In this document: positions 38,297 to 62,759 of the stretch, in pieces | How the letters are laid out: each line of letters starts with the position of its first letter | Numbering within the stretch: position 1 is the stretch's first letter | Source: Paramacrobiotus metropolitanus | Taxonomy: Eukaryota; Tardigrada; Eutardigrada; Parachela; Macrobiotidae | DNA length: 64,000 nt | Direction of reading: 5' to 3' | Assembly: GCF_019649055.1 (NCBI RefSeq) | Contig: NW_026570256.1 | Location: 992,001 to 1,056,000 of the forward strand | The notes under the pieces: generated by a model | What the model was told of the DNA's origin: nothing | Seen by the model: only the letters and a program-made list of their open reading frames with translations | Database searches by the model: none | Translations under genes and position numbers: made by a program

Positions 38297-38300
38297 GCCG
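38297..38300. repeat. Target-site duplication, left (GCCG)
   Basis: GCCG lies immediately before the 5' LTR and again immediately after the 3' LTR (63,114-63,117). A 4-bp duplication is typical of many Ty3/gypsy integrases. Confidence 0.85.
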
Positions 38301-39540: not shown

Positions 39541-39800
39541 TTTGAAAGGGAGAGTGACCTTTAACCTGAATTGAGCTGGAAAGTGACCTTTAACCAAAAT
39601 TGAGCTGGAAAGTGACCTTTAACTAAAATTGAGTTGGAAAGTGAACTTTAACCTGAATTGAGCTGGAAAGTGACCTTTAACCAAAATTGAGCTGGAAAGT
39701 GACCTTTGACTTAAATTGAGCTGGAAAGTGACCTTTAACTAAAATCGAGCTGGGAAGTGACCTTTGAGCTGAGTTGAGTTTGGAAGTGACCTTTACCAAA
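39541..39800. repeat. 29-bp tandem array carrying TGACCTTT
   Basis: Nine units at exact 29-bp steps: TGACCT at 39,555, 39,584, 39,613, (39,642 as TGAACT), 39,671, 39,700, 39,729, 39,758 and 39,787. Consensus GAGCTGGAAAGTGACCTTTAAC plus a variable stretch. Further copies of the motif, at 39,832, 39,953, 39,994, 40,037 and 40,079, are spaced 41-121 bp. Confidence 0.95.
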
Positions 39801-40161
39801 AAGTTGGAACTGATTAAGTTGAACCAAAAAGTGACCTTTTAACGAAGTTGAAATTGAGTCAGTTAGTAGTACAGCGATATCAGCAGCTGTAGAATTTTAT
39901 TCGTAAAAGTGTTCTGAACTGTAAAAAGGCTCTCGAAGTTTTGTCTGAAAAGTGACCTTTAGGGCAAATCTCTCGAACTTTTTATTGAAAAAGTGACCTT
40001 TAAACGGAACTTAACCGAAATTTTTCAATCGAAAAGTGACCTTTAGCAAGGACTTAGAAAAATTTCGAAAGTACAAAGTGACCTTTAGGACAACTGAATA
40101 AACCATACAATAACGCGTGTGTGAGAACAATTGGCAGGAGCGTCCAAGTTATCCGATCAAC

Positions 40162-43100
40162 ATGGACAAAGACAACGACGAACCGACATCAAATAACAGC
40201 CAGGGAAGCAGGAGCTCCCGAGGATCACAGCAAGGTGCAGCTGATCCTTATAAAAAGGAATACAAGTCGCTCGCACGTCCAGTCGGCCACGACAGACAGA
40301 CCCGAGCGGCTGTGACCTTTGCAAGAAAGGACAGCAAAGGCAGCGATAGCACATACCAAGTGGCGCTGGGAGCTACACAGAACGAAGAGAGCTCCAGCGG
40401 AGACGGAAAGCAAACCCCCGCGTCTGTGGCGGGAGGAAAACCGATGAACCAGAAAAAGGTCACTGGGGAGGACAGAACCACAGAGAAGGAAGAGGAAGCA
40501 GTCGGGGCATCACAACTGGATGCTACCACTGTCGGAACTGACGAGCAGGATAAAAATGTGAACCTGACTCGATCGGAAACGGAAAAGACAAAGGTCACCG
40601 AAGAGGAACTTGCCGAACTGGGACTGGATGACCTTTCACTGAACGACAGGACTTCAGCCGATGACCTTTGGGCAACTCCAATGGTCTCAGACGAGTCAAA
40701 TGAATCGTATTTCACGGATGATGAAACGACGATGAATATGTCCTTCCAAACCGCGATAAGAGAAGCCGACCGTGCTGAAGGGATGACACCCTTCAAGGAA
40801 ATACCCGAGCACCTCATTGAACGGACAAAAACAGGAAAGGTCATTAATGTACGACCACCATCACCGAATAGTCCCACAACGACTTTGAGGACTCGTGTGA
40901 GGGAGTTGGAAAGCGAACTCGAAGCCAAGGAAAGTCAGGCAACGAAACGAACAAAAGAAAATCGGGAAAAACTGTCGTCGCTGGAAGCCCGAATATACGT
41001 ATTGGAACAACAACAGGTTGACCTGGAGAGCACGGCGGACGAATGGAAGATTAAGTATGAACGCCAAAGAGAACTCGCGGAAGAATACTTGAAAATGGTC
41101 GATGACAGAGAAATGGAAGGTCATCTTGCAGTCAGTGACCTTAACGAAAGTATGTCAGAAGAATCAGCGGAAAGGTCACAACACTTAGCCGAACTGAAGG
41201 ACGAATGCGACGCATTGAAACAAAAGGTTACCGAAGCTGAAGCAAAGAGGGACGACTATGCGACCAAACTCGCCGAAGCTACCCAGCGACTGTTAACAAA
41301 CACTACTGAAGTGTTCAAGCTCAGAAACGATCTGAAGCAACGGGACGAGAATATCGGAATACTCCAACGAGAATCGAAAGGTCATCAGAGAAGAGCTGAT
41401 GAAGCCGTCCAAGCGGCTAAAGATCTGAGAGACCTCACAGCTACCGAAGGCGCACGGTTGAGCAACGAAATTAAACAGGTGATGGACGAGAACCAGATGT
41501 TGAAGGAAGATAACAAAAAGGTCACCGCAGAGAACATTGAATTGAAAGAAGTCGCTAAGACAATCGCCGAAAAAGGTCTGAGATGGGAGCACGAGGCACA
41601 CCTCCTAGATGTAAAGGTCACCGCGCTCGAATTGAAAGACAAAGAGTGGCAACAAGCGGCTCACCAGAAGACACAGGAAATCATCAAACTCAACACGGAG
41701 TTGATAGATATGACCCAAACGGTAATGACAGGGGAGGATGAGCTCACCCAAACGAAGAATCAGCTGAAGGCAGCAGCCGAGGAATATACGAAACTGGAAA
41801 GAGATGTGACCCAGTTGGTGGAACACATAAAAAAGGTGGAGAATGACACTGAAAAGGTCATCCAGGAGAAAACGTTCCAACTCCACCAGCATATGTTGAA
41901 GGTCAAGGAGGAGAATCAGAACTTGAAGACCGAGAAGGAGGAATCTCAGTTAAAAATCAGACGCCTCGAAGACGAAAATAAGACGCTTAATATGTCCAAC
42001 AAACATAAAGACGAACAGCTCCTGCAATATGGAGTTCGAACCGCAATAGTGGAATCACCCCCGCCCAGTTACAGTAAAGCACATGAAACGGGCACGGGCA
42101 AAAGCTTCCACTTTGAGATGCCGCTGCGAACTGGTACCGGCAGAGGAAACGTCAAAGACGAAAAGGATGGTGAAAAGGTCAAAGATGACAAAGAGCCACC
42201 ATCAGGAGGCTATCCGCACACGAGTCATGGCGATCCCTCCCAATTTCCCCCGCATATTGAAACGAATGTGTATAATGACGAAAGGCTCAAGGACAGACCC
42301 TCCAGCCGACAAGAACGCTCTCGGAAGTCCCGTTACGGAAAGGCGAAACCAAAACAAAATGACGATGAAAATAGCGAAGAGGAGGATGACCCGACAGCGG
42401 AATCGACAGCGGCGCAATTGACAAAGGCGCTAAATTCGATGGCTAGGAAAACGACATTAGTGACCTTTGACGGAAGTCGCGATGCGGTAAATGGCTGGAC
42501 ACAATTGGTCCGAGATACACAGCGAACCTACCGACTTACGGATGATCAAATTTTAATCGAAATAGCTAGCGCGGTGAAGGGACCGGCAAAAACCTGGTTC
42601 GAAGGAGAGAGAGAAATCGCACTCCAGGAAGAGACCGAATATACGGTGACAGAATGGATGACTAAATTTAAAGACGAATATGGTGACCGTGATGAAGAAG
42701 TCCTCGGCTTACGAGAAGCCATGGCAAGGAAATTCGACCTTGGAAAAGAATCGCTTGACCAGTTTTATCAAGCGATCATGAAATACAAGGCGAAAAGGAT
42801 CATTACTGAGAAGCAAGCAGTCGGCTTCCTTATCGAAGGATGCAGAGCGGACAGTGACCTTTATAAGGCACTGCGCACACAGCAGTGTAGAACGCCAACC
42901 GAAATCAAAGATTTCTTCCGACATTGGTCAGCTGGAGAAGAAAAGTACAAAGCACCGAAAGGTCAACGCAACCAGGACTATGTCACAATTCGCACAGGAC
43001 AAGTTGAGAATGTGCCACAACAAAGGATTGCGGCAGCACCGGTTCAACAGGCGGTTGAATACCGCAGAGAAGCCCCGGTGCAAGAGGTCACAAAGGAGGT

Positions 43101-43968
43101 GACCTTTATCGATAGCCAGACGGGACAGCCACTTACATACGCAATGGTAGCTGCGATACAGGCGGCGGCTCAAGTGAGACCGGTACCTCAGAATGTGGCT
43201 CCACCGGCACCACAGAATGTGGCCCTTATGAATGCAGGATTACCACAACAAGGAGTGGGCAATGGAAATTTCGGTGGAAACGGATATGGTAATGGAAATT
43301 GGAATGGAGGTCAAGGGAACTTCCAGAATCAAGGTCAAGGTCAAGGCAACTTCCAGCCAAATAGAGGAAATCAGAATAACTTCCAGCAGAATCAGGGGTC
43401 ACGAACGGAATTCAAGTTTCAAATGATTGACGGATGGGTTGCAAATGGTGTGCAGATGTGCCAATACTGCATGTATGGCAACCACCAGACCCAGGGATGC
43501 AAGTTCGCGAATACGCCACCGGATCAGAACCCGAACTTGTTCGCCTTTAGAGAATGGCAACGGCTGCGCAATTCGGGCGGCTGGCGCCAGGCGGTAGCAA
43601 ACGGATATGACCTGATAGCTCAATGGTATCAGGCGAAAGCGAACTTTCAGCAAGGAAACGGAAATTATGGAAACGGAAATGGTGGCCAAGGCGGCGGCAA
43701 CCGTGGCGGCTTCCGAGGCGGCTTCAAAGGAAAGAATAGGGGCTTCGGCCGCGGCAATTGGAATGGCGGCAACCGAAACGGCGGAAACGGAGGTGGCCAA
43801 GGAAACTACCAACAGGGTGGTGGCCAAAATAATGGTGGTGGCCAGAATAACGGAGGCGGACAAAATTATGTCCCGGTAAATAACGGCGGACAAGGAAACG
43901 TGCAAGGAAACGTGCAGGGCGCGCAACAAAGTGGTGCGCCGGTTCAGGGAAACGGGCAAGATCAGTAG
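40162..43968 (+). CDS. gag: Gag: coiled coil, capsid-like domain, zinc knuckle
   Basis: Structural polyprotein, 1268 residues from the first ATG (40,162); the frame is open from 40,117. Order: charged, disordered N-terminus (1-220); long coiled coil (about 230-625, heptads around RTRVRELESELEAKE); basic linker; retrotransposon gag/capsid-like helical domain at about 770-930 (VTFDGSRDAVNGWTQLVRD, AKTWFEGEREI, FKDEYGDRDEEV); Q/N/G-rich tail. A canonical CCHC zinc knuckle, CQYCMYGNHQTQGC (CX2CX4HX4C, about 1100-1113), and RGG repeats (RGGFRGGFKGKNRG) give nucleic-acid binding. It is two to three times the usual Ty3 gag length because of the added coiled coil and prion-like tail. It ends at TAG 43,966, inside the stem of a frameshift signal. 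About 25 copies of AGGTCA/TGACCT lie in the coding sequence in all frames. Confidence 0.93.
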   Translation: MDKDNDEPTSNNSQGSRSSRGSQQGAADPYKKEYKSLARPVGHDRQTRAAVTFARKDSKGSDSTYQVALGATQNEESSSGDGKQTPASVAGGKPMNQKKVTGEDRTTEKEEEAVGASQLDATTVGTDEQDKNVNLTRSETEKTKVTEEELAELGLDDLSLNDRTSADDLWATPMVSDESNESYFTDDETTMNMSFQTAIREADRAEGMTPFKEIPEHLIERTKTGKVINVRPPSPNSPTTTLRTRVRELESELEAKESQATKRTKENREKLSSLEARIYVLEQQQVDLESTADEWKIKYERQRELAEEYLKMVDDREMEGHLAVSDLNESMSEESAERSQHLAELKDECDALKQKVTEAEAKRDDYATKLAEATQRLLTNTTEVFKLRNDLKQRDENIGILQRESKGHQRRADEAVQAAKDLRDLTATEGARLSNEIKQVMDENQMLKEDNKKVTAENIELKEVAKTIAEKGLRWEHEAHLLDVKVTALELKDKEWQQAAHQKTQEIIKLNTELIDMTQTVMTGEDELTQTKNQLKAAAEEYTKLERDVTQLVEHIKKVENDTEKVIQEKTFQLHQHMLKVKEENQNLKTEKEESQLKIRRLEDENKTLNMSNKHKDEQLLQYGVRTAIVESPPPSYSKAHETGTGKSFHFEMPLRTGTGRGNVKDEKDGEKVKDDKEPPSGGYPHTSHGDPSQFPPHIETNVYNDERLKDRPSSRQERSRKSRYGKAKPKQNDDENSEEEDDPTAESTAAQLTKALNSMARKTTLVTFDGSRDAVNGWTQLVRDTQRTYRLTDDQILIEIASAVKGPAKTWFEGEREIALQEETEYTVTEWMTKFKDEYGDRDEEVLGLREAMARKFDLGKESLDQFYQAIMKYKAKRIITEKQAVGFLIEGCRADSDLYKALRTQQCRTPTEIKDFFRHWSAGEEKYKAPKGQRNQDYVTIRTGQVENVPQQRIAAAPVQQAVEYRREAPVQEVTKEVTFIDSQTGQPLTYAMVAAIQAAAQVRPVPQNVAPPAPQNVALMNAGLPQQGVGNGNFGGNGYGNGNWNGGQGNFQNQGQGQGNFQPNRGNQNNFQQNQGSRTEFKFQMIDGWVANGVQMCQYCMYGNHQTQGCKFANTPPDQNPNLFAFREWQRLRNSGGWRQAVANGYDLIAQWYQAKANFQQGNGNYGNGNGGQGGGNRGGFRGGFKGKNRGFGRGNWNGGNRNGGNGGGQGNYQQGGGQNNGGGQNNGGGQNYVPVNNGGQGNVQGNVQGAQQSGAPVQGNGQDQ

Positions 43969-44813
43969 GCACCGGTGAGCCTACTGATCGCCCCGACCCT
44001 AAACCACCGGATAAAAAGGGAATGGAAAGGTCACCACTGCAGAATGGTACTGCAGTGAATGTGACCACTGCAACGGCTATAAGGATGCCGTCAGCGCGAA
44101 AAGAAAATGGACCGGCTATATGGATGCCGCAACCACAGGAAACGGCTATAAGGATGCCGTCACAGCAGCAAAAAGAACTGGTTATCGGGAAACCAGTACA
44201 AGCGGATAAAAGGTCACCGCAGAACGGTACTGCGAGTGGATATGTGCAACGAGACCAAAGGTCACCGCAGAATGGTACTGCGAGTGGAAATTGTCGTGAC
44301 GGTAGCGCGACACTGCGAACAGCGCAGCAAAATGAAAGGTCACCGTATTGCAGCGAAAAGGTGTTAGCTGAACGCCGTGCATTACGCAATGCGAAGATTC
44401 AACAGGCGTTGTTGAACCAGAAGAAACCACAGAATGGCACGACACAAGAGGAAAATGAGCAACATGCGAAATTCCGGAAATACTTGGCAGAAAACGACAA
44501 AGCGAATGAGTCATGTTGTGACTGTTACGGAGATGCAAAGCCAAAGTTCTGGAATTGCTCGGAGGACGAAGATGAGAAGTTGATGAGGCAAAAATGGATG
44601 GAGCAGAATGTCACTGCTAACAGAAGAGATGAAAGGTCACCTTCCGTAGGAAAAGTCCAAGTGAAAAGTAAAGGAGCAAGTGCGAACGCTAAAGGTCACG
44701 GCGACAGCGTCGTGTTAAAAGGTCAAGAAACAGACTTGACACTGCGAACAGCGCAGCAAAGAATAGCGAACAGGCACAGCAGAACTCCGATGACTCACTT
44801 GTGGATGCAGTAA
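43884..44813 (+). CDS. -1 frame linker ORF after gag (hairpin-rich)
   Basis: Open in frame -1 relative to gag and overlapping it by 85 nt; an internal ATG lies at 44,022. The product is low complexity, rich in Asn, Gln, Thr and Ala, with repeats such as PQNGTASG and TAIRMPS. No domain is recognised. At the RNA level the region is a series of small hairpins (see findings), several directly after AAAGGTCAC. It ends at TAA 44,811; the same frame then continues open to 45,068 and overlaps the protease frame from 44,888. It probably serves as a gag-protease linker made by frameshifting rather than a separate enzyme. Confidence 0.7.
   Translation, partial: RRTRKRARKRAGRATKWCAGSGKRARSVGTGEPTDRPDPKPPDKKGMERSPLQNGTAVNVTTATAIRMPSARKENGPAIWMPQPQETAIRMPSQQQKELVIGKPVQADKRSPQNGTASGYVQRDQRSPQNGTASGNCRDGSATLRTAQQNERSPYCSEKVLAERRALRNAKIQQALLNQKKPQNGTTQEENEQHAKFRKYLAENDKANESCCDCYGDAKPKFWNCSEDEDEKLMRQKWMEQNVTANRRDERSPSVGKVQVKSKGASANAKGHGDSVVLKGQETDLTLRTAQQRIANRHSRTPMTHLWMQ
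43947..44010 (+). promoter_or_regulatory. Programmed -1 frameshift site at the gag end
   Basis: Slippery heptamer GGGAAAC at 43,947-43,953, phased G GGA AAC in the gag frame. Spacer of 6 nt. Perfect 11-bp stem, GATCAGTAGGC (43,960-43,970) with GCCTACTGATC (43,979-43,989), 8-nt loop ACCGGTGA. Loop bases CCGGTG (43,972-43,977) can pair with CACCGG at 44,005-44,010, forming an H-type pseudoknot. The gag stop (43,966) lies within the stem. The -1 frame is open from 43,884 through 44,810. The heptamer is the one used at the gag-pro junction of type D retroviruses. Confidence 0.93.
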
Positions 44814-44911
44814 CGCTGCAACGGAAGGAAATATGGCAAAAGTGGCCTACAGACCGAATGGGAATCACGGGATGTGGATACCCGTGACACCGAAAGCGAA
44901 ACAAAAGTGGA

Positions 44912-46828
44912 ATGTCACAAGAAGATTACTGGGACATGCGAGAACTGCGAACGCAACATGAGAGAAAACGACTGGAAGAATTGGTTACCGGGAAAGAAGT
45001 TAAAAGGTCACCGAACCTTGCTCCAGTATTCAACGCAACTGAATACAAGAATGCACAAGCTGACCTGAATAACCCGCGAAACGCACCACCGAAAGATAAA
45101 CCGTCGAATTATGGAGAAAAAGTTCCCATACAAAAGCTGTCAAACGGCGGATTTGTCATAAAGCGCAATGAAAGGTCACAGGACTTAGCGCAAAATGAAC
45201 AGGAAGGAGGGTCAAATGAGATGGCGCAAATGCAACAGACTAGCGCTGTCGAAAGGTCACGGGACTTCTCACAAGCACTACAAAAGGATGCCAATGACAA
45301 GTCACCAGCCCGAACAGACGGGATGTCTTCGCAAATCGACCCGACGAAAACGAACAATGAAGTGTCTGCAAAGGTGATTGAATGGATGACCGAAAAGGGA
45401 TATGATATGGTAACATATGAAAGGTCACCAAATGAGATGAAAGACAGCGAAGCAGACGAATTGAAGCAAGCTGACCAAATAACAAGTGAAGTCATTGAGA
45501 AGCTGCGGGATAAACGAAATGAAAACCGCAAAGAGGAACTGATCCACGAGACGATAAATGAAGTGACTAAAGGTCACGGGGATAGCACAAAAGCAAATCC
45601 GCAAGTGCAGAATGTTGAAAAGGTCACCAGCGGTAAAATGGCTGCAGAGAAGCAAGCAGACAAGAAAAAACCGCAGAAATTCTACGATGTTCGAACTGAC
45701 GTGCCACACAGGATTGACAAGTTGAGGGAGATACTGAAAGGTCATAGTACTCCAGCGAAAGGACAAGTGCTTCCCGACATGGATCCGGGACCGGTATCTC
45801 TAATCCCTGTGAAATGCAAGATACACACATTGAAGATTCAAAACGGAAAATTACCCAAAAGAATTGAAGCGTACACTCATGAAGTGAAAGTGGGAGACAT
45901 AAAGGTCAACGCAATGTTGGACACCGGCGCTGAGACGTCGCTGATCAGCAAACCGTTTTGCGAAAAGAATGGACTTCATATGCTCCCATTGCCACCAGAC
46001 AGACTGGTGAAGATAAACGGAATTAGCGGAACGTCAGGATTCCTGGTGACGCACTACTGCGTAGCACCAGTGACCTTAAGGAAAAAGACTAGCGAACATT
46101 CATTCTACGTCCGACCGAAATGTGATGACGTCCAGGTGTTATTGGGATTTGACTTCTTGGAGAAGAAGTTTGTACTGATGGATAACGAAGGTGAAGAAGA
46201 GAAAGAAGATGACCCGAAACCAGTCGCCAAAGTTCAAGTCGGAAAGGTCACCGAACTTGTAAAACAGACGGGAAATGCTCAAACGGCTAATAAAACGCTA
46301 ATCCCAGTACCAGAGGCACCGGGAATCGAGCAGAAAAAGACGGTGCAAAAAGAATTGTCAACATTTGAACAGCTGAAAGTGATCCAGCAGGAAATTGAAA
46401 ATACATTAAACCGGACAATACTGACACAAAAGGGAAGAGAAAAGGTCATCCCAGTACCAGAGGCACCGGGAATGACGAGAATGCAGCAGAACGAAATTAC
46501 CCAACGAATAATCCCGGTACCAGAGGCACCGGAGAAGAAAAGTGAAAGTGGAAATGTTAAAAAAGCGAACGAGAGGAAAAAGGAACCGCTTGCGCCAGAC
46601 ACGGATGAGGCGATCATATTTCTCCCGGACGGGAGAAGTATGATCGCAGACAACTGCAAGCAAGGAGCCACAGAAAAAGAATGTGTTGACAAAGTTATCC
46701 CAGTACCAGAGGCACTGGGAACGAAAGATGAAAGGTCACCAGTTGAACTTGTGCCAGAGCTGGATCCGAAAACGTCAGCAAGACCTTTTTCGAACCACGA
46801 CCTGCTACCGAAAATGAAACCGAAGTAA
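44912..46828 (+). CDS. pol: Pol part 1: retropepsin-type aspartic protease
   Basis: 638 residues from the ATG at 44,912 (frame open from 44,888). A charged N-terminal region of about 300 residues precedes the protease: VNAMLDTGAETSLIS, catalytic Asp at residue 337, then the glycine-turn GFDFLEKKFVLMD region that corresponds to the second half of the fold. Retropepsins dimerise to process Gag and Gag-Pol. After the protease come four copies of the motif IPVPEAPG (46,302; 46,448; 46,511; 46,698), with a fifth in the next ORF (46,996). The frame is -1 relative to the linker ORF. A GGGAAAG heptamer at 44,990-44,996 with a 5-bp hairpin at 45,004-45,019 could move ribosomes from the extended linker frame into it, but only if the UAA at 44,811 is read through. 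Confidence 0.88.
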   Translation: MSQEDYWDMRELRTQHERKRLEELVTGKEVKRSPNLAPVFNATEYKNAQADLNNPRNAPPKDKPSNYGEKVPIQKLSNGGFVIKRNERSQDLAQNEQEGGSNEMAQMQQTSAVERSRDFSQALQKDANDKSPARTDGMSSQIDPTKTNNEVSAKVIEWMTEKGYDMVTYERSPNEMKDSEADELKQADQITSEVIEKLRDKRNENRKEELIHETINEVTKGHGDSTKANPQVQNVEKVTSGKMAAEKQADKKKPQKFYDVRTDVPHRIDKLREILKGHSTPAKGQVLPDMDPGPVSLIPVKCKIHTLKIQNGKLPKRIEAYTHEVKVGDIKVNAMLDTGAETSLISKPFCEKNGLHMLPLPPDRLVKINGISGTSGFLVTHYCVAPVTLRKKTSEHSFYVRPKCDDVQVLLGFDFLEKKFVLMDNEGEEEKEDDPKPVAKVQVGKVTELVKQTGNAQTANKTLIPVPEAPGIEQKKTVQKELSTFEQLKVIQQEIENTLNRTILTQKGREKVIPVPEAPGMTRMQQNEITQRIIPVPEAPEKKSESGNVKKANERKKEPLAPDTDEAIIFLPDGRSMIADNCKQGATEKECVDKVIPVPEALGTKDERSPVELVPELDPKTSARPFSNHDLLPKMKPK

Positions 46829-50934: not shown

Positions 50935-51086
50935 CTTGAAGTGGAACCAGAACCTCAAAATGGAAAGGTCACCGGACTTAACGCGGAATTCGGAGATCAA
51001 AATGGAAAGGTCACCGGACTTGACGAAACGGTGGAAAGTCGGAATGACCTTTGGGAAAAGGACAAAGTGACACAAGCGCTGAATGA

Positions 51087-53036: not shown

Positions 53037-53255
53037 CTCCTACAGAATTGCTGACCCAGAAAGGTGAAGTGGAAGATGCGGCCGACAAAGAACTCCTTGA
53101 TCGGATAACTAAAGGACGCAGAGAAAATTAACCCACATAAATACGAATAAGGGGTTTACCTCACTTAAAATAGGAGTTGGGAAGGTGTAAAAAGGTCACC
53201 ACCGTTAAAAAGCTAACCAGTGTTGTTTCATTGTTACAGAAGGTAAGCTCAGTTA

Positions 53256-54317: not shown

Positions 54318-54437
54318 TCGAGAAGATACAGATATTCCTTAAGACGATTCCTAAAGAAAGGGGACACCTGACAAGCAGCGTGGCGGGGCCCATCACAGGC
54401 ATTAGTTCGAAGCACCCGTAGAGGAGATGTCGGATAG

Positions 54438-56105
54438 CGTCCTCCTGAAACAAAGAGAAAAATTGAGACAGAATTAACCGAACGAGCAGAAAGGTCACGA
54501 GCCAGCTCTACTGCAGGGTCGATACGCGGACGTACTAGTTCGGTCACGGAGCCATCTAGCGGGACCGTGAAAAGCGGAAAAAGAGTAAGGTCACCGACGA
54601 CAAGTCCAAAGGAAAGTGACAAGAAGGAGCGGCGAACGAAAAAGGTCACGACGAGTAAACCACCGATCCCAGTGGGTAGAAAGAGTGCACCACCCACGCC
54701 GCCGGACCCTGAAGCTGCTTCAGTTCGACTTCCAAAGTGCCGGACTTTTACAGTTAAATACACTGGAACTGACCATAACGAACGAAAGGTCACCGCTCGG
54801 ATCGTTGATAAAAGAACGAATAAGGAGATCGAGTCATACAATCCCCTCGCGGACAAGTCAGTCAAAACTGAAATTGGAGAAAGAGCGAAGACAGAAGTTA
54901 ATGAGGCATTACAGTTCATTCCCCCGGAGGAACGTCATAACCCGAGAGTCCTCATTCAGATGATGAAGCACGTGGTGTCCAAAGTTGCGGTCGAAGAAAA
55001 CGCATGGATCCGTATTAAGGTGGGCACAAATGACGACCACTTAGCATATACATACACAGTGGACGGGAAACTGCTGACGAAAGAGAGAATTCGGCCGAAA
55101 CCGACAGCAGACCCAGACCCGAGCAAGCGAACATTAGACGATTACGAGCCGATCCTGAAATATACCGATGGAACGTGCAGAAAAGTGACGCTGACAATCC
55201 ACTACGGCGATGGGACAACGGAGTGTATAACCGCGGTAATTGTTGATCCGATCACAGGAGATCCGATTCCATACGCTCCATGGGACGTGTCAGAAGAAAG
55301 CGCCGAGCACGCCAATCGGGAAGCACTTGAACAGTTGTGGAACTTAATACCAGTAAGCCAACGTCAGGATCCTCTAGTTCAAGCGAATACGCTGATCAGC
55401 ATGATGCGACATCGAGCGGAGATAGACGAAGCTCATTTCCGACTCACAAGAAAAATGGAAAACGGAGCGTACAAGACGGTGTTTTATGACGCAAAGAAAA
55501 ACCCCTTATGGGAGATCGTCACACAGGGACAAACGAAAGAAACACCGCACTTGGAAGGTCAGGCCCTAGACCCGGCACAAGAAGGTGGAGCCGGAGAGAT
55601 GGCAGAGGCCTCTGTAGCCGAAAAGGCAGGAACGGAGAGTACCCGGAGACCATCGGAACTGGAAGAATCAGAAGAGGAGGAAGCTAACGATGATTCGGCA
55701 GAGGAACAGGCCGACGAAGACGACGACAGGGGCGAGGAGCACGAGGAAGATAAACAGCCCCCAAAAGTGGTCGTCAAACCGAGGAAAGCGGCTAAACTAG
55801 AAGAGGCCATGAACCGTGAGAAGGTCAAGAAAGGTGAATTCCTAAAGAAACGGAAGGAAGAAGAAGATAAGAAGAAAAAGAGTGGTGATGAAAGCGAGAG
55901 TACGAGCGCCCGGAAGAAAAAGGGAGAAAGAAAGAAGAAAGACGAACCGTCGTCCCATGATGTCGAGATATTGGATGAATCAGTCGGTGAAGCGGAAGAA
56001 AGGTCATCCGTACCTATTATCCCAAAGAAATTCGTTATCGAATCGGCGCATCAAAGTCAAAGGTCACCGAGCCTGAGCCGTCAACATCCAAAGGAAAGGT
56101 CATAG
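54438..56105 (+). CDS. Accessory ORF B, internally duplicated domain plus charged tail
   Basis: Open from 54,438; no ATG precedes the conserved part, so initiation is non-AUG, or the ORF is reached by splicing or recoding. Numbering from 54,438: basic, Ser/Thr-rich start; two related domains at about 100-220 and 245-365, sharing a beta-rich pattern (TFTVKYTG...VTARIVD..T...I..Y.P and VTLTIHYGDG...ITAVIVDPITGDPIPYAP), each followed by a helical segment (EALQFIPPEERHNP / EALEQLWNLIPVSQRQDP). Then an acidic block (EEANDDSAEEQADEDDD) and Lys-rich helices. No known family. It overlaps the next ORF by 115 nt in frame -1, with CCCAAAG at 56,021-56,027 phased C CCA AAG. Confidence 0.75.
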   Translation, partial: RPPETKRKIETELTERAERSRASSTAGSIRGRTSSVTEPSSGTVKSGKRVRSPTTSPKESDKKERRTKKVTTSKPPIPVGRKSAPPTPPDPEAASVRLPKCRTFTVKYTGTDHNERKVTARIVDKRTNKEIESYNPLADKSVKTEIGERAKTEVNEALQFIPPEERHNPRVLIQMMKHVVSKVAVEENAWIRIKVGTNDDHLAYTYTVDGKLLTKERIRPKPTADPDPSKRTLDDYEPILKYTDGTCRKVTLTIHYGDGTTECITAVIVDPITGDPIPYAPWDVSEESAEHANREALEQLWNLIPVSQRQDPLVQANTLISMMRHRAEIDEAHFRLTRKMENGAYKTVFYDAKKNPLWEIVTQGQTKETPHLEGQALDPAQEGGAGEMAEASVAEKAGTESTRRPSELEESEEEEANDDSAEEQADEDDDRGEEHEEDKQPPKVVVKPRKAAKLEEAMNREKVKKGEFLKKRKEEEDKKKKSGDESESTSARKKKGERKKKDEPSSHDVEILDESVGEAEERSSVPIIPKKFVIESAHQSQRSPSLSRQHPKERS

Positions 56106-56806: not shown

Positions 56807-57276
56807 CAAGCCCGTTGGGGTCAACGAGTCACCGGATCAGCCAATACATTAACGCCGTGTGGAATGACGGAAAGGGACTGATAAAGGAAATCGACACGGC
56901 CACTGAACGCGTGTTGCCCAGGATGATAAAACAGAACATCCTCTCTACAACAAACGCACATAAAGGTTACCCGATTCGATATACGAGAGTAGGCCTGATA
57001 CCGCCGGAAAAACAAGTCCACTGTCATATGTCCGAGAGTCAGGAGATGGATAAGGTGCCATCGAGTGGAGATCCAACAACTCCCATACTGAATCGGATCG
57101 CGCAGTTAACAGCGGAGGAAGAAACAGTTCGGGTTAAAGCACAAGCACCGAAAGTGTCGAAAAGAAGGGACCCATGGATACTGAATCGGAAGAAAGTGAC
57201 GATGACAAATCAGCCCCAACGCCTTTGGAACCGGCGACAGAAAAGCCTAAAGGTCAAGAGACATCTGGAACTGTGA
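56803..57276 (+). CDS. Accessory ORF D
   Basis: 157 residues from ATG 56,803, in the AUGA overlap typical of termination-reinitiation; frame open from 56,767. The first 80 residues look folded (ISQYINAVWNDGKGLIKEID, NAHKGYPIRYTRVGLIPPEK). The rest is basic. -1 relative to ORF C and overlapped by ORF E. Unknown function. Confidence 0.6.
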   Translation: MTSPLGSTSHRISQYINAVWNDGKGLIKEIDTATERVLPRMIKQNILSTTNAHKGYPIRYTRVGLIPPEKQVHCHMSESQEMDKVPSSGDPTTPILNRIAQLTAEEETVRVKAQAPKVSKRRDPWILNRKKVTMTNQPQRLWNRRQKSLKVKRHLEL

Positions 57277-58172
57277 CGGAAGAAACTCAACCGAAAGGTC
57301 ATGGGACTTCAGAAAAACGGGAGAAAGAAAAGGTCATGCTCCCAATGGACAAGGCAGCGGCAGAAGCAGAAGCTGCATCTGCGCGACAGGTGTACCAGAA
57401 ATCATTGTTCACACCATTGAAGGAGGCTTTTGAGAAAGAGCGGCCGAAGTCAGCAGATGAAGTGGGAGGTCACGAGACTTTACCACAGAAGGAGAAAGCT
57501 GATGAACCGAAATCGGCACAGTCATCATCTGGTTCAATGGCGAAATTGAGGATTGACGAAATGGAGAGAACAGAAGCAACGGACTCGGCAATATCCCCCC
57601 AGAAAACGGAGAATAGCGGTACAAAAACGAAAGAGCCGACAGATTACACGTTAGGAGCACCGTTGGATGTTAATAACCGGACATGGAACGAAGTCCAGGC
57701 GGCGATTCAGATTACCAGAGAACACGAGATGCTTGGGACGGAACTGAAAAGACAAGTCGCCGAAAATTCTAAAGGAAGATCGTCACTCAGCATGAGCGAG
57801 CGAGTCCTTAAACGGGCGTATAAGGAAGGAAAGTTGGGATGCAAATATAGCAAGGACAACAAAGTTATTTACTACCTTCCGAAACAGGGCACGGATCGTA
57901 CACCGAGACTTAAAATGGAGCTGGAGGCCTGGAAGATAGCCATCACAGATGTGGCTTTGGACGCCATTGGCGGTACCAATGGAGCGTCTTGGAATGACCT
58001 TTCGAACTTCATGGCCGTCCATTACGAACTGGGAGATTTGAACATTGAAAACGATAAAGAGTGGATCAAAAACGCCGTTGAAGCTCTGATCGCGGAGAAT
58101 GCACTGCATATTAATAAGGACGGCCGAGTGGACTTCAAACCGTATAACCCGCCGGCGAAAGAGTCTGAGTGA
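57174..58172 (+). CDS. Accessory ORF E, two winged-helix-like repeats
   Basis: 332 residues from ATG 57,174 (frame open from 57,138, overlapping ORF D). After an acidic/basic disordered half there are two similar helical modules, about residues 164-240 (TWNEVQAAIQITREHEMLG ... GKLGCKYSKDNKVIYYLPK) and 250-328 (SWNDLSNFMAVHYELGDLN ... ENALHINKDGRVDFKP). Spacing of helices and a terminal beta wing recalls the winged-helix fold of linker histones (H15), and the second copy resembles it more. This is pattern resemblance only. If right, the protein could bind DNA or compact the element's nucleic acid. Confidence 0.7.
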   Translation: MDTESEESDDDKSAPTPLEPATEKPKGQETSGTVTEETQPKGHGTSEKREKEKVMLPMDKAAAEAEAASARQVYQKSLFTPLKEAFEKERPKSADEVGGHETLPQKEKADEPKSAQSSSGSMAKLRIDEMERTEATDSAISPQKTENSGTKTKEPTDYTLGAPLDVNNRTWNEVQAAIQITREHEMLGTELKRQVAENSKGRSSLSMSERVLKRAYKEGKLGCKYSKDNKVIYYLPKQGTDRTPRLKMELEAWKIAITDVALDAIGGTNGASWNDLSNFMAVHYELGDLNIENDKEWIKNAVEALIAENALHINKDGRVDFKPYNPPAKESE

Positions 58173-58444
58173 ATGGGACGAGTGTAATATGCAGCGAGTA
58201 ATGAACCCTGCATATTACATAAAAAGCATAAAACAGTTAAAAACGAATGAGAAAAGTTTTACGGAAAAATGAAAGTGAAAAGTCAATTCGATTGATAAGA
58301 CTAATAGAAAAGGTCACAGTAGTCAGAAAGTACTGATAACGTGAGAAAGGTCACCACGTTACAGTGATAGAGAGGGCAGCAGGAGCTAGGAAAGTCTCAG
58401 CTCAGTAACGGAATAGGCGTAAAAATGATAGAGAAGCCTTGATA
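58173..58444. other. Short spacer between accessory ORFs
   Basis: 272 nt with two AAAGGTCAC sites (58,311; 58,348) and an inverted pair, ATATGCAG (58,189) with CTGCATAT (58,208). Possible internal promoter, RNA element or intron; undecided. Confidence 0.4.
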
Positions 58445-59170
58445 ATGGATAAGATGGAAAGATTAACGTGGAAAAGTTACTATGATGGATTGTTTTCTGA
58501 TTGCAGATTCAAAACGGAGAAAATGGCACAGAAAGGTCAAGCCACTCCTAAAAGCTCAGGATCCGCATCGGAGATAAACAGATCTACGGGCTATAACCCA
58601 AAGTGTCCGGACTGTTTAAGGAATAACAGGAAAGTTGATAAGAAGTTCCCGTGCTACACATGTGTTCACAAGTTGGGGGACCCACACATCGTCTCACTCG
58701 TGGGACTTATGGAAGCTAAACGCGGGAACATGGATGTCTTTCGAAACCTCATTAGTGCGAGGAATTACGGCAGTATCCCAGTTGAAGAGCGAATGCTACT
58801 CGAGGATCGTTATCGGGAAGCGATCCGGAATAACGAAAGTGGCTGGGACGAGACCTTGGAGCCGTTAAAATGCCCACAAACGGACGCATACCGGAAGAAA
58901 TTTGAAGAGGATCAGGAAAAGATGCGGCGGCAACAGCTGGAGGACGAACTCCGGGCAAAGATTAATGCGGCGAATCAAAAGGCGAGCGAACAGGCCGCAA
59001 GAGAGGCGATGCCAAAACCCTCGAGTTCAACTGTACCGACAGCCAGCCTCAACGAAGAAGAAGCGCAACTTACACGTCAGTCTCTTATCATCCAGATTGA
59101 CACGCTGACGAGTGATCCGGCCGCTATGCAACAGGAACTATTTGATGCGCTGTTGCGGGAGAAAAGTTGA
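58445..59170 (+). CDS. Accessory ORF F with a CX2CX12CX2C cluster
   Basis: 241 residues from ATG 58,445. A four-cysteine cluster at residues 54-73 (CPDC ... CYTC, CX2CX12CX2C) followed by His suggests a zinc-binding module. Then a helical region (VSLVGLMEAKRGNMDVFRNL) and a long charged helix (EEDQEKMRRQQLEDELRAKI). Function unknown. Despite the element's wealth of nuclear-receptor-like half sites, this is not a nuclear receptor finger: spacing and P-box differ. It ends at UGA 59,168, overlapping a -1 frame opened at 59,146. Confidence 0.7.
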   Translation: MDKMERLTWKSYYDGLFSDCRFKTEKMAQKGQATPKSSGSASEINRSTGYNPKCPDCLRNNRKVDKKFPCYTCVHKLGDPHIVSLVGLMEAKRGNMDVFRNLISARNYGSIPVEERMLLEDRYREAIRNNESGWDETLEPLKCPQTDAYRKKFEEDQEKMRRQQLEDELRAKINAANQKASEQAAREAMPKPSSSTVPTASLNEEEAQLTRQSLIIQIDTLTSDPAAMQQELFDALLREKS

Positions 59171-59511
59171 GACTGCAGAAGGGTTTCGCTCCGGCACCAT
59201 ACATAAAGAAGGCAGTTGAAGAACGTATGGAAGACTGCGCAAATCCCGTCAGAACGAGAGTAATGTTCTACAGGCGCTCAGAGGATTCAGACGAGATGAC
59301 GTGTTCACACGGCCCCGTTCCCCTCCGCATAGAGAAAGGTCACGCGGACATTCAAGGGAACACGAGCGAATCTCTGAAAGACGGAGCGAAAGGTCACGTG
59401 AACATTCTCGTGAAAGGACACGGGATTACCGCAGCGAAAGGTCACGCGAACGTTCCCGTGATCGCGATTACCGTGGCGGAAGAGGATGGGTGCGCCATGG
59501 AAATGAGATAA
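59146..59511 (+). CDS. Accessory ORF G (bridging -1 frame)
   Basis: No ATG at its start; open from 59,146, overlapping ORF F by 25 nt and ORF H from 59,220. Only its first third looks folded (KGFAPAPYIKKAVEERMED). The rest is probably the shadow of ORF H's RS-rich region, where AAAGGTCAC reads KGH here and ERS in ORF H. Likely a bridge used between two -1 shifts. Confidence 0.4.
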   Translation, partial: CAVAGEKLRLQKGFAPAPYIKKAVEERMEDCANPVRTRVMFYRRSEDSDEMTCSHGPVPLRIEKGHADIQGNTSESLKDGAKGHVNILVKGHGITAAKGHANVPVIAITVAEEDGCAMEMR

Positions 59512-61304
59512 CCGAGACAAGTATTCAGCGGAAAATCGATACGGCAAAGATCTTGGCCGCGACAAGAGGACGTGAAGAACAACGGCGTGCGGAGACTTAC
59601 CGTACAGAGCCTGAAAAGAAAGGTCATCAGGTGCCGTTGGAAGTTGGATTCCGTAACCGCAATGTTAGAATGTCAACACCCGAAAGGTCATGGGATAAAA
59701 GGCGCGAACACACGCGAAATCGAACGCCAGACCCACAGGATAAACGATGGCAGGAAAGAGCCAGGTATTATGCGGGTTTTGAATCTGGCGCAAGCAAAAG
59801 GTCATCGAGCGCAGAACGGGAAGATTCACCCCCGAAGTATCAGCGGATGGAATCGACAGTCCATGTAGTGAATCCCATCGTGAGTGCGGTACAGGAAGAT
59901 GACACGATGGAAGGGCCCGGCTCAGTCGCAGAAGCGCCTGCGGCGCAAGAAGATGATATGATGGAAGGGCTCGGTTCAGCCGCAGAAGCGTCCCAAGATA
60001 ACGTGATACACCGAAGAAATGTGGTCCTTGACAGTGACCCCCAACCATCCACATCGACGGGTATTGAACCGCCGCAGAGCAGACGACGCGAACAAGAAAG
60101 TCGGCGCGAACCGGATGAACGTCGCGAAGTCGGTCGGCGAACGACTTCCCGATTCAATAACCGACACCCCGACACAATCGACATGGTATACGATATGCGC
60201 GACACCGATGAACAAAAGACGGAAATCTGCCGATATATGGGGATTGAAGACGATTCGGCGGATGCGAATAAGATCCACACAATTTTGAATCAGCTGCGTC
60301 AATTTTTATTCGATTCGGGCTATGCGAAAGAAATTAAAGAGGGAGTGGAACAAGGAATTTTCCGTCAATTATACATTCCCCGCGACTCAGCAAGGGATTG
60401 TTACCTCCCTATCCGACGAAACGGATTACATAGCCTATTGGATTTGAATTTGTTGGACGTGCCACTGGATACGACTGACCCAATCGGGATGACACAATTC
60501 TATTATAGAGATTATCCCGAACGACAAGAATATGTGGCTCAGTTTGTCTTACGACACGTGAATCCAGCCTTCAAGTTGCTTGCAGCAAGAGCATCGATCG
60601 GATTACACTTGGATCCTAAAGACCATGCCGCAAGAAGGATGGGGCAGAAGGTCTTCGCTGCGAGATTGGCACACTATAAGACACAGAACCAGTTGGTGTC
60701 AAATACTATGAAGGACGATATCCCACCGCTCTTCCGACCTCACGTGGCGAAATTGGGAGAACCGATGGAACATGTCGGGATAGCCCATACGGCAAGAAAG
60801 GCGTTGAAAAAGTGCAAGATACGAATGGAAAAGGGCAATCTTACACAACGCCATGCCTCCCAAGTGGAAGAGAGGATTAATAAGATTAAAGACACCATGG
60901 GAAGTGACTACGTCGAACCTTTTGACGGAGTTGAAATGTACATCGACGAGTTCCTTGTAAAGAAAAGCGATCGGCGCCCAGAACGCGCTCCTAACCAGAT
61001 TGGACGACGTGGCCTACGGAACCAGCAACTCCGCGATAACCTCGCCGACGTGCAACGGAGATTGGCGGATGACCCTAACAACCGGAGACTCCGGTTGGAG
61101 GAAAATGACGCACGCTATCGAGTCGAGGCGGTTAAAAGAAGTCGCCAAGGTAAAGGCCGTGGTCAGCGAGAAGTTGACCCCGAAAAGGTCATGGCAGTTG
61201 ATTCCATGGAACCAATTGACCGGACGTCTGACCGTAATCAACCGGAAAACGCTAAGAGGCGCCCGCCAAGAGATGGCGAAGGCGACTCAAATGAAATGGA
61301 ATAA
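59220..61304 (+). CDS. Accessory ORF H: RS domain plus unknown helical domain
   Basis: Open from 59,220 with no early ATG (nominal GTG 59,301), about 694 codons; -1 relative to ORF G. N-terminal arginine/serine repeat domain (RERSRGHSREHERISERRSE, then RSERSRERSRDRD; about residues 35-90), the hallmark of SR splicing factors, here partly encoded by repeats of GAAAGGTCACG. A disordered middle contains a duplicated EDDTMEGPGSVAEAPAAQ / EDDMMEGLGSAAEA unit. A folded domain of about 350 residues (QLRQFLFDSGYAKEI, PIRRNGLHSLLDLNLLD, VAQFVLRHVNPAFKLLAARA, MEMYIDEF-like segment) has no family I recognise. No membrane segments. A possible RNA-binding or capsid-associated protein. Confidence 0.75.
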   Translation, partial: RTYGRLRKSRQNESNVLQALRGFRRDDVFTRPRSPPHRERSRGHSREHERISERRSERSREHSRERTRDYRSERSRERSRDRDYRGGRGWVRHGNEITETSIQRKIDTAKILAATRGREEQRRAETYRTEPEKKGHQVPLEVGFRNRNVRMSTPERSWDKRREHTRNRTPDPQDKRWQERARYYAGFESGASKRSSSAEREDSPPKYQRMESTVHVVNPIVSAVQEDDTMEGPGSVAEAPAAQEDDMMEGLGSAAEASQDNVIHRRNVVLDSDPQPSTSTGIEPPQSRRREQESRREPDERREVGRRTTSRFNNRHPDTIDMVYDMRDTDEQKTEICRYMGIEDDSADANKIHTILNQLRQFLFDSGYAKEIKEGVEQGIFRQLYIPRDSARDCYLPIRRNGLHSLLDLNLLDVPLDTTDPIGMTQFYYRDYPERQEYVAQFVLRHVNPAFKLLAARASIGLHLDPKDHAARRMGQKVFAARLAHYKTQNQLVSNTMKDDIPPLFRPHVAKLGEPMEHVGIAHTARKALKKCKIRMEKGNLTQRHASQVEERINKIKDTMGSDYVEPFDGVEMYIDEFLVKKSDRRPERAPNQIGRRGLRNQQLRDNLADVQRRLADDPNNRRLRLEENDARYRVEAVKRSRQGKGRGQREVDPEKVMAVDSMEPIDRTSDRNQPENAKRRPPRDGEGDSNEME

Positions 61305-62759
61305 TGTTGATCGTTAGGATCACACTATTAAAAAGGACGTCTACGGCATTTTGTCGGCACGTCACACAAATGAAAAATGGTGTTGTATATGAGGGCGTTA
61401 TGACTTGTTCACATAAACCGTATTCGTGTATTTGTTGTTTTCAGCATTTATAGCACAGAATCAGAAAGGGTAAAGAAATCATGTGGAGCATCGATTGGGG
61501 TTGAAATTGATTCGGTCTATAAAGCCGGCCCCAAAGGAGTTGCTACGGCAGTTAGCCGGCTCTCCTCCTTACGCGATTCAGTGTCATAAATTGGCAAGAG
61601 AAACTACGGTAATCAAGCCGGATCTCTTGCATACGAAAGTGGGCCACAAGCGGCGAAAAAGAGAAAGACAGCAGGTGGAAATTTTGATGGGGTAAACTTG
61701 ATGCGGCAGTCAGCCGGCCTCATTAGAGTTGCTACGGCAAACTATGCCGGCAATCTCTCCGAGCGATTCAGTGTTGAAAATTAACGAGAGAAATAGCGGT
61801 AACCAAGCCGGATCTCTCGTACCGAAGTTGGGCCACAGGCGGCGAACAAGAGTCCAAGATCGGATGTGGAAGCGTCATGGGGTAAATTTAATGCGGTAGT
61901 TAGCCGGCCCCATCAGAGATGTTACGGTAAACTCTGCCGGCACTCTGGCCGCTCGAGGCATATTGAAGTGGGATGTGCGACGGAAAGGTCAACCGGCAAG
62001 TTCTACCAGGGAGGCAAGCGAAGAAATGCTTGACGGCCGCAGAAAATTGGCTAAGTTCCTCCATGACCTTTGATGGAAGTTTGAAGAGAAGTTGGATGAC
62101 CTTTGGGATCATTACCGCCCAAGAGAGTCACCGTAGCAGAATTTAAGTCGCATGACCTTTTGGGACCATTAACCCAAACCGAGTCGCACATCACAACGGA
62201 TCATCTCAACAAAGGATGACCTTTACCAGGGAGGAAACGAACTACGCTTGTCTATACGACGTCCCTCCGTGACTTTTAACGGATCTCATTTGAAAGTCGT
62301 ACAATTGATACGCACCGTATTCCAAAGATTGAAGCAGTATTCCTAAGTCGTACTGGATACGCACCTGATTCTCAAGCGGATTGTGATGAAAAGTCGCACT
62401 ACGGATGCGCGGGATCGCTCAACAGAGCGGAATAGGCCAAAAAGTGCGGAAAACGGTGGACAGGACCTGTGACCTTTACGAGTCAGAAGTGGAGGATCCT
62501 AGTCTACATTTGATTAATACTTTTGTTGATCTTTTAACTGTTGATCTGTTTTGTATTAAAATTGATATGGAATAGTATTTTTATAAATGGATCTCTTTAT
62601 TCACATCGTATTAAATGGAATTGTGCCTTATGGAATTGATGTGATAAATGGAATAAGAGAATTTGATGTTTTTGAGCACGCACAGACACCGGCGACCGTC
62701 TTTTCGTGGATTCGGGAGTGTGTCCAGCCTCAACGGAGCTCGGCATCCCCCCAGAGGCA
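61305..62759 (+). other. Element 3' UTR
   Basis: About 1.45 kb without long ORFs. It contains 190-bp repeats with conserved stems (61,536-61,960), a run of TGACCTTT sites (62,063; 62,096; 62,152; 62,217; 62,470) and one AAAGGTCA (61,986). No clear polypurine tract abuts the 3' LTR (the sequence before it ends CCCCCCAGAGGCA). Confidence 0.8.
61536..61960 (+). repeat. 190-bp tandem repeats with conserved hairpins
   Basis: Two full units and a partial third, offset by 190 bp. Each has a TTGCTACGGC...GCCGGC hairpin and an 8-bp stem: GCAAGAGA/TCTCTTGC at 61,594-61,630 and ACGAGAGA/TCTCTCGT at 61,784-61,820. Both are followed by GGGCCACA(A/G)GCGGCGAA, also present in the leader at about 39,000. 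Confidence 0.9.

What the first reader, a model, noticed from the sequence alone, without database searches (positions are those of the whole stretch)
39541..62480. AAAGGTCA motif saturates the element in every frame and on both strands
By hand I count about 120 AGGTCA or TGACCT hexamers between the LTRs (about 82 as AGGTCA, 40 as TGACCT), mostly as AAAGGTCA(C). Chance expectation for 24 kb is about 12, and the 38 kb of host DNA in the window has about 15. In coding parts the motif reads ERS, KGH or KVT in sense and SDL/DDL or VTF in reverse, so no protein motif explains it. It is absent from the LTRs. A nucleic-acid-level function must have been imposed on the whole internal sequence. AAAGGTCA is the monomeric nuclear-receptor site (NBRE, NR4A/DHR38; close to ERR and FTZ-F1 sites), so host receptors could drive or insulate it. 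Alternatively it is an RNA tag for packaging, nuclear export or splice control.
Basis: partly seen in the sequence, partly recalled or inferred. Interest (0 to 1): 0.95.

Follow-up and report, generated by a model that had tools for sequence, protein, structure and literature searches.

The report
Conserved octamer saturating a giant retrotransposon
A 24.8-kb jumping gene in a water bear carries about 100 exact copies of one eight-letter DNA word, on both strands and inside its genes, and natural selection keeps most of them in place, which suggests that a DNA-binding protein sits along its whole length.

Summary
The element is a Ty3-type LTR retrotransposon (38301-63113, 354-bp identical LTRs) in a tardigrade, evidently Paramacrobiotus metropolitanus. 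Its interior holds 67 AAAGGTCA and 32 TGACCTTT; in ORFs 61 and 13 against 5.8 and 0.4 after codon shuffling. In seven other copies (82-91% identical) 78-86% of octamers survive, against 26-57% of other octamers. Four-fold sites inside the motif differ in 4.8% of comparisons against 35% outside (three most diverged copies). Conservation stops at the octamer's edges, a ninth base is almost never G, and both orientations are kept alike. In families 66-72% identical, 16 of 22 sites persist, against 7.5-9.8% of control octamers. Two sampled places of a sister clade have none in 7.7 kb. Genome-wide, close pairs are about 100-fold in excess; with C, G or T first there is no excess. I read them as double-stranded-DNA sites for a monomeric protein, taken up by one clade of elements. 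The octamer is the NR4A site (NBRE) and the host has an NR4A gene, so host NR4A is my best candidate; an element-encoded VANC-like factor is the main rival. Binder and benefit (I infer keeping the element transcribable) are not shown.

The parts
38301..38654 (+). 5' LTR (354 bp), no octamer
   Evidence: 354/354 identical to 62760-63113
62760..63113 (+). 3' LTR; flanked by GCCG at 38297-38300 and 63114-63117 (4-bp target duplication)
39541..40161 (+). 5' leader with 13 TGACCTTT, 8 of them in a 29-bp tandem array (39542-39831)
   Evidence: 9 of the 13 kept in at least 5 of up to 7 aligned copies
40162..43968 (+). ORF, Gag-like by position; 10 forward and 6 reverse octamers
   Evidence: no Pfam family at 0.001
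44022..44813 (+). ORF with 7 forward octamers
44912..46828 (+). protease ORF, 11 forward octamers
   Evidence: PF13975 3.3e-08, PF13650 3.7e-08
46834..50934 (+). reverse transcriptase / RNase H ORF, 14 forward and 4 reverse octamers
   Evidence: PF00078, PF17917; Ty3 RT best PDB matches
50922..51047 (+). three 42-bp repeats each starting with AAAGGTCACC
   Evidence: D5
51087..53036 (+). integrase ORF, 2 forward and 2 reverse octamers
   Evidence: PF17921, PF00665
53256..54317 (+). accessory ORF A, no octamer
54567..56105 (+). accessory ORF B, 5 forward octamers
57174..58172 (+). accessory ORF E; C-terminal half possibly tandem winged-helix / linker-histone-like (candidate element-encoded DNA binder)
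   Evidence: PF00538 below cut-off, E 0.053; fold unreliable, pLDDT 36.8
58439..59170 (+). accessory ORF F: C-x2-C-x12-C-x2-C, then coiled region; by frame length it appears joined to RS-rich ORF G in one ~930-aa frame in many copies
   Evidence: fold pLDDT 55.5
59301..61304 (+). accessory ORF G, RS-rich start, 7 forward octamers
61305..62480 (+). 3' untranslated region with 1 forward and 5 reverse octamers
39555..62477. the 99 octamers themselves (67 AAAGGTCA, 32 TGACCTTT); 73 lie wholly in ORFs; each site and its retention listed

Best explanation
The octamers are double-stranded DNA recognition sites, read as AAAGGTCA[C/T/A] in either orientation, for a protein that binds as a monomer, and selection keeps them individually over most of the transcribed body of a clade of giant Ty3-type elements. 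Shown here: enrichment, octamer specificity, nucleotide-level purifying selection at synonymous sites, like treatment of both orientations, sharp edges, persistence across families, absence from two sampled places of a sister clade. Inferred: the binder is most likely the host's NR4A receptor (orthologue of insect HR38), whose known monomer site is this octamer. Inferred: the benefit is additive along the 24-kb body, that is, bound receptor keeps the element's chromatin open and transcribable (anti-silencing and activation from inside the gene body), perhaps starting from the tandem array in the 5' leader and spreading into the genes.
For: Codon-shuffle excess 61 against 5.84 and 13 against 0.36. 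Retention 78-86% in seven copies against 26-57% for all octamers and 27-59% for permuted octamers. 47 of 99 sites kept in every aligned copy against 1605 of 22915 control octamers, 7.0%. Four-fold sites 10/209 in motif against 1965/5594 outside (C3, C37, C96) and 6/320 against 1798/9425 (C1, C32, C9, C167); identity is at background one base before the octamer and two bases after it; reverse sites in ORFs kept 77/89, forward 340/398. Most one-base variants are not enriched; ninth base C 60, T 24, A 15, G 0 of 99. Families 66% and 72% identical keep 10/15 and 6/7 sites against 7.5% and 9.8% of control octamers. In an unbiased ranking of octamers by conservation AAAGGTCA comes first in both family alignments. 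Genome: 42562 octamers against 15522 for the reversed word; pairs with 13-42 bases between 3896 against 34, while BAAGGTCA pairs are 100 against 128. NR4A binds AAAGGTCA as a monomer (PMC4777543, passages); the host NR4A DBD exon is closest to NGFI-B 1cit (4.1e-21), with RTDSLKGRRGRLPTKPK downstream. The exact octamer is shared by families 28-34% diverged, unlike the differing targets of element-encoded VANC proteins (PMC5735166, passages).
Against: No binding, chromatin or expression datum exists here. The P0003 clade lives in the same genome with 0 octamers in the 7.7 kb sampled, so the host factor is not needed by all elements; clade restriction would also fit an element-encoded binder. The need for A at position 1 genome-wide is stricter than I would expect for NR4A (expectation recalled), although within this element the three position-1 variants are mildly enriched (ratios 2.9, 2.1, 3.8) and half kept (19 of 37). 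About 100 sites is far more than any receptor-driven promoter is known to need (recalled). Reverse-orientation four-fold sites taken alone are few: per-copy Fisher P runs from 0.0018 to 0.71, under 0.05 in two of seven copies. Two ORFs have hints of DNA-binding folds.
Confidence: 0.42

Rival explanations
1. An element-encoded DNA-binding protein (for instance the winged-helix-like part of ORF E, or the cysteine-pair domain of ORF F) binds the octamers and protects the element from silencing, as VANC proteins do for Arabidopsis VANDAL transposons.
For: Clade-restricted motif as far as sampled; tandem array plus dispersed sites, as for VANC targets (PMC5735166, passages); ORF E C-terminus weakly like linker histone, E 0.053, below the cut-off; ORF F pattern C-x2-C-x12-C-x2-C present in this element and in L069; ORF F has 150 scored matches of 342 candidates in the genome.
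Against: The octamer is identical in families 28-34% diverged, while VANC21 and VANC6 targets differ. VANC21 sits in non-coding parts; these sites are mostly in ORFs. In L069 about 1 kb lies between the integrase and ORF F, against 5.4 kb here, and a tblastn with all 12 ORFs found only RT, IN and F, so ORFs A-E are missing there, yet it has 47 octamers in 10 kb. Identity with a known animal receptor site would be a coincidence.
Confidence: 0.25
2. Another host DNA-binding protein (ERR, FTZ-F1/NR5A, HR39-like, or a non-receptor factor) is the binder, with the same body-wide effect.
For: The host has ERR-like and NR5A domains among 63 zf-C4 matches, which are exons and not genes; a host promoter-like cluster of four octamers exists at C1:331801-332200.
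Against: NR5A and ERR sites carry C or any base where AAAGGTCA has its first A (site definitions recalled); BAAGGTCA pairs show no excess, 100 against control 128, and T is not favoured before the octamer.
Confidence: 0.18
3. RNA-level signal: sites in the genomic RNA for packaging, export, splice control, or duplexes between forward and reverse sites.
For: Within this element the sites lie in the interior and not in the LTRs, and forward sites outnumber reverse 67 to 32. ORF G is RS-rich; three of five database relatives of ORF F are named RNA-binding protein 25-like.
Against: A single-stranded RNA motif would use one orientation; reverse sites in ORFs are more over-represented (13 against 0.36) and kept alike (77/89). 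Duplex pairing would tolerate G-U variants; AAAAGTCA and AAAGATCA are 0 observed, 3.3 and 2.3 expected.
Confidence: 0.1
4. No function: mutational or copying by-product (tandem duplication, gene conversion, codon bias).
For: Some sites are in tandem repeats (39542-39831, 44196-44291, 50922-51047).
Against: Conservation stops at the octamer edges, so conversion tracts do not explain it; codon-preserving shuffles fail; a sister clade with likewise T-poor pol has none in 7.7 kb.
Confidence: 0.02

Closest known systems
VANDAL transposons and VANC anti-silencing proteins (Arabidopsis; PMC5735166, passages seen)
   Same: A mobile element carries many copies of one short exact motif, partly as tandem repeats, maintained for a sequence-specific DNA-binding protein.
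   Different: There the motif sits in non-coding parts, is bound by the element's own protein and differs between families; here most sites are in ORFs, the octamer is constant across three families, the element is an animal LTR retrotransposon, and the binder is unknown.
Drosophila gypsy element with its Su(Hw) insulator array (recalled; search returned nothing)
   Same: Ty3-type LTR element with a tandem array of host-protein sites in the 5' leader.
   Different: About a dozen sites confined to the leader in gypsy; here about 100 over the 24-kb interior, and a different site.
NR4A response element NBRE (AAAGGTCA; PMC4777543, passages seen)
   Same: Identical octamer, monomeric layout; host NR4A domain present.
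   Different: Known NBREs are sites in promoters and enhancers (recalled); saturation of a coding element is not in the passages seen.
Bacterial DNA uptake sequences and Chi-type dispersed signals (recalled)
   Same: Short exact word scattered through coding DNA in several frames under selection.
   Different: Chromosomal, bacterial, other machinery.

Membership tests
Ty3-type LTR retrotransposon | LTR pair, PR-RT-RNaseH-IN order, Ty3-like RT | tested here: met
   354-bp identical LTRs; Pfam order; Ty3 RT 6.9e-61
NR4A/NBRE-regulated sequence | Exact AAAGGTCA octamer laid out as single sites, not dimer half-sites | tested here: met
   spacing never below 18 bp in 655 intervals of fetched pieces; genome-wide gaps of 1-9 bp 199 (control 23) against 3896 at gaps of 13-42 bp, about 6-fold fewer per bp, not forbidden
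NR4A/NBRE-regulated sequence | NR4A receptor encoded by the host | tested here: met
   C45:296780-298780
NR4A/NBRE-regulated sequence | Receptor bound to the element in cells | not testable with these tools
   no chromatin data
VANC-like anti-silencing system | Element encodes the motif-binding protein | tested here: inconclusive
   ORF E and ORF F hints only
VANC-like anti-silencing system | Motif changes between related families together with the protein | tested here: not met
   identical octamer in families 66-72% identical; in the sister clade no word of pol is both enriched and conserved, other parts of it not seen
VANC-like anti-silencing system | Targets in non-coding parts | tested here: not met
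   73 of 99 octamers wholly in ORFs
gypsy-type insulator | Cluster of host zinc-finger sites in the 5' leader that blocks enhancers | tested here: inconclusive
   leader array present; blocking activity not testable

The most novel reading that the evidence does not exclude
A eukaryotic mobile element has written a protein-binding code over its coding body: about 100 individually selected monomer sites for a host nuclear receptor, so that the element's genes double as one continuous enhancer or anti-silencing platform tied to host receptor (possibly stress-induced) activity.
Probability: 0.35. Interest if true: 0.95.

Novelty: new variant of a known kind. Interest (0 to 1): 0.86.

Why it matters
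It is a clean natural case in which selection for protein sites overrides synonymous freedom over 24 kb, with about 100 replicate sites, many copies, and motif-bearing and motif-free relatives in one genome. That makes the open question of how very long transposons stay transcribable against silencing directly testable, and ties it to one named host transcription factor. NR4A genes are induced by cellular stress in vertebrates (PMC7901948, start of abstract in the listing), so a link between tardigrade stress and element activity could be tested.

Tried and rejected
Nematode host: guessed from genome size; SL1 family and pattern searches gave nothing (one search says its control rang nowhere), then integrase relatives named Paramacrobiotus metropolitanus.

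Protein-motif origin (ERS, KGH, KVT): rejected by codon shuffles and four-fold sites. Gene conversion: rejected by the sharp edges.

Strict exclusion of close spacing: no interval under 18 bp in fetched pieces, but a genome-wide search found 199 pairs at gaps of 1-9 bp against 23 control, so it is depletion, not exclusion. Helical or nucleosomal phasing: none of six periods tested stood out.

A substitute motif in the motif-free clade: some words exceed the shuffle null modestly (L075 TCCGAG/CTCGGA 13 against 2.9, z 5.6 against 4.2; L074 GAGCCAAA 4 against 0.12, z 6.0 against 4.2), but none of these leads the conservation ranking between L074 and L075, where GAAGA (15 of 25, p 4e-06 uncorrected) comes first and no octamer stands out; not pursued.

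Element-encoded binder by fold: ORF E pLDDT 36.8, ORF F 55.5; both too poor for a fold search, so none was run.

Absence of motif pairs near ORF-F elements at C1:99249 and C1:676297 (my notebook entry) is not used: the place lists are capped and seem to under-list the minus strand, since a 92%-identical ORF F copy at C1:846874 also shows none in its body.

Rows dropped: HSPs under 200 bases and HSPs reusing over 30% of already used subject bases; copy C96 is represented by two of three pieces. Copies are related, so pooled counts are not independent. Family comparisons used the ORF parts that tblastn aligned (RT, IN, F: 5337 nt for L069; RT, IN: 3888 nt for L072).
Full report
WHAT IT IS. The window lies in a 169.8-Mb genome. 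The closest relative of the integrase is an annotated protein of the tardigrade Paramacrobiotus metropolitanus, P0001, 95% identical over 99% of the query, so I take that species as the host (taxonomy). The feature is a Ty3-type LTR retrotransposon at 38301-63113: LTRs of 354 bp, 100% identical, GCCG on both sides, protease, reverse transcriptase-RNase H and integrase in that order, RT closest to Ty3 among solved structures, then about 8 kb of accessory ORFs without Pfam families above the cut-off. Reading frames are interrupted in this copy between the RT and IN ORFs and between ORFs F and G; the first pair is continuous in P0001, and the second, judged by frame lengths of about 930 residues, in many copies. 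Forty LTR matches were scored among 250 candidates. LTR pairs of ten other copies are 98.9-100% identical, so many lineages moved recently.

The unit is the octamer AAAGGTCA / TGACCTTT: 99 in the 24.1-kb interior, 4 in 39.2 kb of flanking DNA, 0 in the LTRs. Shuffling synonymous codons within each ORF predicts 5.84 and 0.36 where 61 and 13 are found; no shuffle of 200 exceeds 12 and 3. The octamer appears in all three sense frames and, read backwards, in the two frames where it does not create a stop.

IT IS UNDER SELECTION AS DNA LETTERS. I compared seven other copies (C32, C167, C1, C9, C3, C37 in three pieces each; C96 two pieces of three), 82-91% identical to this one. Octamers at the same place survive in 78-86% of cases in each copy; other octamers survive in 26-57%, and octamers made of the same letters in 27-59%. 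47 of 99 sites survive in every aligned copy, against 1605 of 22915 control octamers. At four-fold degenerate codon positions, 10 of 209 comparisons inside motifs differ, against 1965 of 5594 outside (C3, C37, C96), and 6 of 320 against 1798 of 9425 in the four closer copies. In the three most diverged copies identity is at background up to the base before the octamer, 0.91-0.98 over its eight bases, 0.88-0.89 at the ninth, and at background from the tenth. Losses are largely balanced by gains: the pieces of the six wholly fetched copies, small flanks included, hold 90, 90, 93, 90, 95 and 92 octamers (sums) against 99 here; ungapped gains per copy number 4 to 11.

SPECIFICITY. In ORFs the exact octamer is 74 against 6.0 expected. 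Of its 24 one-base variants the three at position 1 reach ratios of 2.9, 2.1 and 3.8 and are kept in 19 of 37 comparisons with the diverged copies, against 213 of 263 for the octamer; three others exceed twofold on counts of 1 to 4, and AAAGGGCA (4 of 4) and AAAGGTCG (3 of 3) are fully kept on tiny counts; the rest are neither. The ninth base is C 60, T 24, A 15, G 0 of 99; among 545 intact-site comparisons it was G in the other copy three times. In the L069 family G occurs in 2 of 47. Genome-wide, direct pairs of AAAGGTCA with 13-42 bases between them number 3896, against 34 for the reversed pattern; the same search with C, G or T as first letter gives 100 against 128. So A at position 1 is needed for the clustered use, which separates the signal from ERR and FTZ-F1/NR5A sites as I recall them.

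DOUBLE-STRANDED DNA RATHER THAN RNA. Inside ORFs forward sites are kept in 340 of 398 comparisons and reverse sites in 77 of 89; outside ORFs 36 of 46 and 92 of 122. Relative to codon shuffles the reverse orientation is, if anything, more enriched. A single-stranded RNA reader would not do this. The caveat is that reverse four-fold sites are few (14-16 per copy); alone they are significant only in C3 and C37. The layout is that of monomer sites: in the fetched pieces no two start closer than 18 bp in 655 intervals, and genome-wide gaps of 1-9 bp are about six-fold rarer per base than gaps of 13-42 (199 over 9 values, 3896 over 30). Some arrays with 10-11-bp spacing do exist elsewhere, so this is depletion only.

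DEEP IN ONE CLADE, NOT FOUND IN THE NEXT. Two further families on contig C1, 65.8% (L069) and 71.8% (L072) identical in aligned ORF DNA, carry 47 octamers in 10 kb and 16 in 5 kb. Of the octamers of this element that could be aligned, 10 of 15 and 6 of 7 are present at the homologous place, against 7.5% and 9.8% of control octamers; 4 of 14 and 5 of 11 of theirs are absent here. When octamers are ranked by conservation without naming a motif, AAAGGTCA comes first in both comparisons. By contrast the P0003 clade (P0003 is 46% identical to this integrase over 71% of it; 60 of 2279 candidates scored), sampled at C68 (P0003 itself) and C37 (70% identical to P0003), has 0 octamers in 7.7 kb; the corresponding RT-IN part here has 9 in 3.95 kb, so about 18 would be expected. 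It shows no word of its own in pol that is both enriched and conserved. As far as sampled, the motif is a property of a clade of elements, not of all elements of this host. The genome-wide excess of about 27000 octamers (42562 against 15522) is of the size expected if a few hundred such elements carry it (ORF F alone gave 342 candidates); that is a rough inference.

WHO READS IT. The octamer is the NR4A monomer site (PMC4777543, passages). The host genome has 63 zf-C4 matches, exons and not genes, including an NR4A gene at C45 whose DBD exon matches NGFI-B best (1cit, 4.1e-21) and which is followed by RTDSLKGRRGRLPTKPK, the A-box region as I recall it, besides ERR-like and NR5A domains. A short host promoter-like stretch (C1:331801-332200) has three octamers just before an open frame and one just inside it, one hint that the host uses the site. 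Against this, nothing here shows binding, and the element has its own candidates: the C-terminal part of ORF E (linker-histone-like at E 0.053; predicted helices and strands in two blocks of three helices and two strands, the second with strands of two residues, but pLDDT 36.8) and ORF F (C-x2-C-x12-C-x2-C, also in L069). I prefer the host receptor because the octamer is invariant over families in which an element-encoded reader might drift, as VANC21 and VANC6 targets differ (PMC5735166, passages), and because the L069 copy has only about 1 kb where ORFs A-E stand here yet keeps the density.

HOW IT LIKELY WORKS. Inferred: receptor bound every few hundred bases keeps the 24-kb body accessible and transcribable, each site adding a little, which is why single sites are selected although there are about 100. 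The leader array would be the strongest cluster. Repression, insulation or import of the long cDNA by bound receptor are not excluded.

NOVELTY. Searches for giant LTR elements in nematodes (no paper) and tardigrades (no paper), for retrotransposons with P. metropolitanus (no paper), for tardigrade Gypsy elements (8 papers), for dispersed sites in retrotransposon coding sequence (8 papers) and for NBRE with retrotransposons (6 of 67 papers listed) showed me no description of such a pattern; I saw listings only, apart from passages of PMC11071193, and subscription journals are mostly not held. PMC11071193, on tardigrade TEs, does not name this genus in its main text. The nearest kind is the VANDAL/VANC system; hence 'new variant of a known kind', with a real chance that it is more.

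Noticed in passing
L070 (C1:331801-332200): Four AAAGGTCA within about 150 bp, three as TATAAAGGTCACC upstream of an open frame starting MSPSRSVNVIMMTF and one inside it (read on the minus strand); possible host promoter using the same site.
   Followed up: partly
C36:805305-805727, C19:212008-212103, C22:165768-165967, C16:789811-791323: Arrays of AAAGGTCA at 9-11-bp spacing, some repeated every 81 or about 90-100 bp; not known whether host satellites or elements.
   Followed up: no
window 46280-47021: Five copies of a repeat coding IPVPEAPG/IPVPEALG-type peptides in the protease and RT ORFs, unrelated to the octamer.
   Followed up: no
window 58439-61304: ORFs F and G appear to form one ~930-aa RS-rich frame in many copies; three of five annotated relatives of ORF F are named RNA-binding protein 25-like. 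The RS codons are partly written with the octamer.
   Followed up: partly
window 62741-62759: The stretch before the 3' LTR (CCCCCCAGAGGCA) looks a poor polypurine tract for a Ty3-type element (by eye).
   Followed up: no
L071 (C1:565101-566400): A different repeat, TCTGCAAAGGTCATCCACC, contains the octamer; no good match to this element or L069.
   Followed up: no
window 8671-11612 and 35805-37785: Berberine-bridge-type FAD oxidase genes: the second stretch matches FAD_binding_4 and BBE, the first looks alike by eye; unusual in animals as I recall.
   Followed up: no
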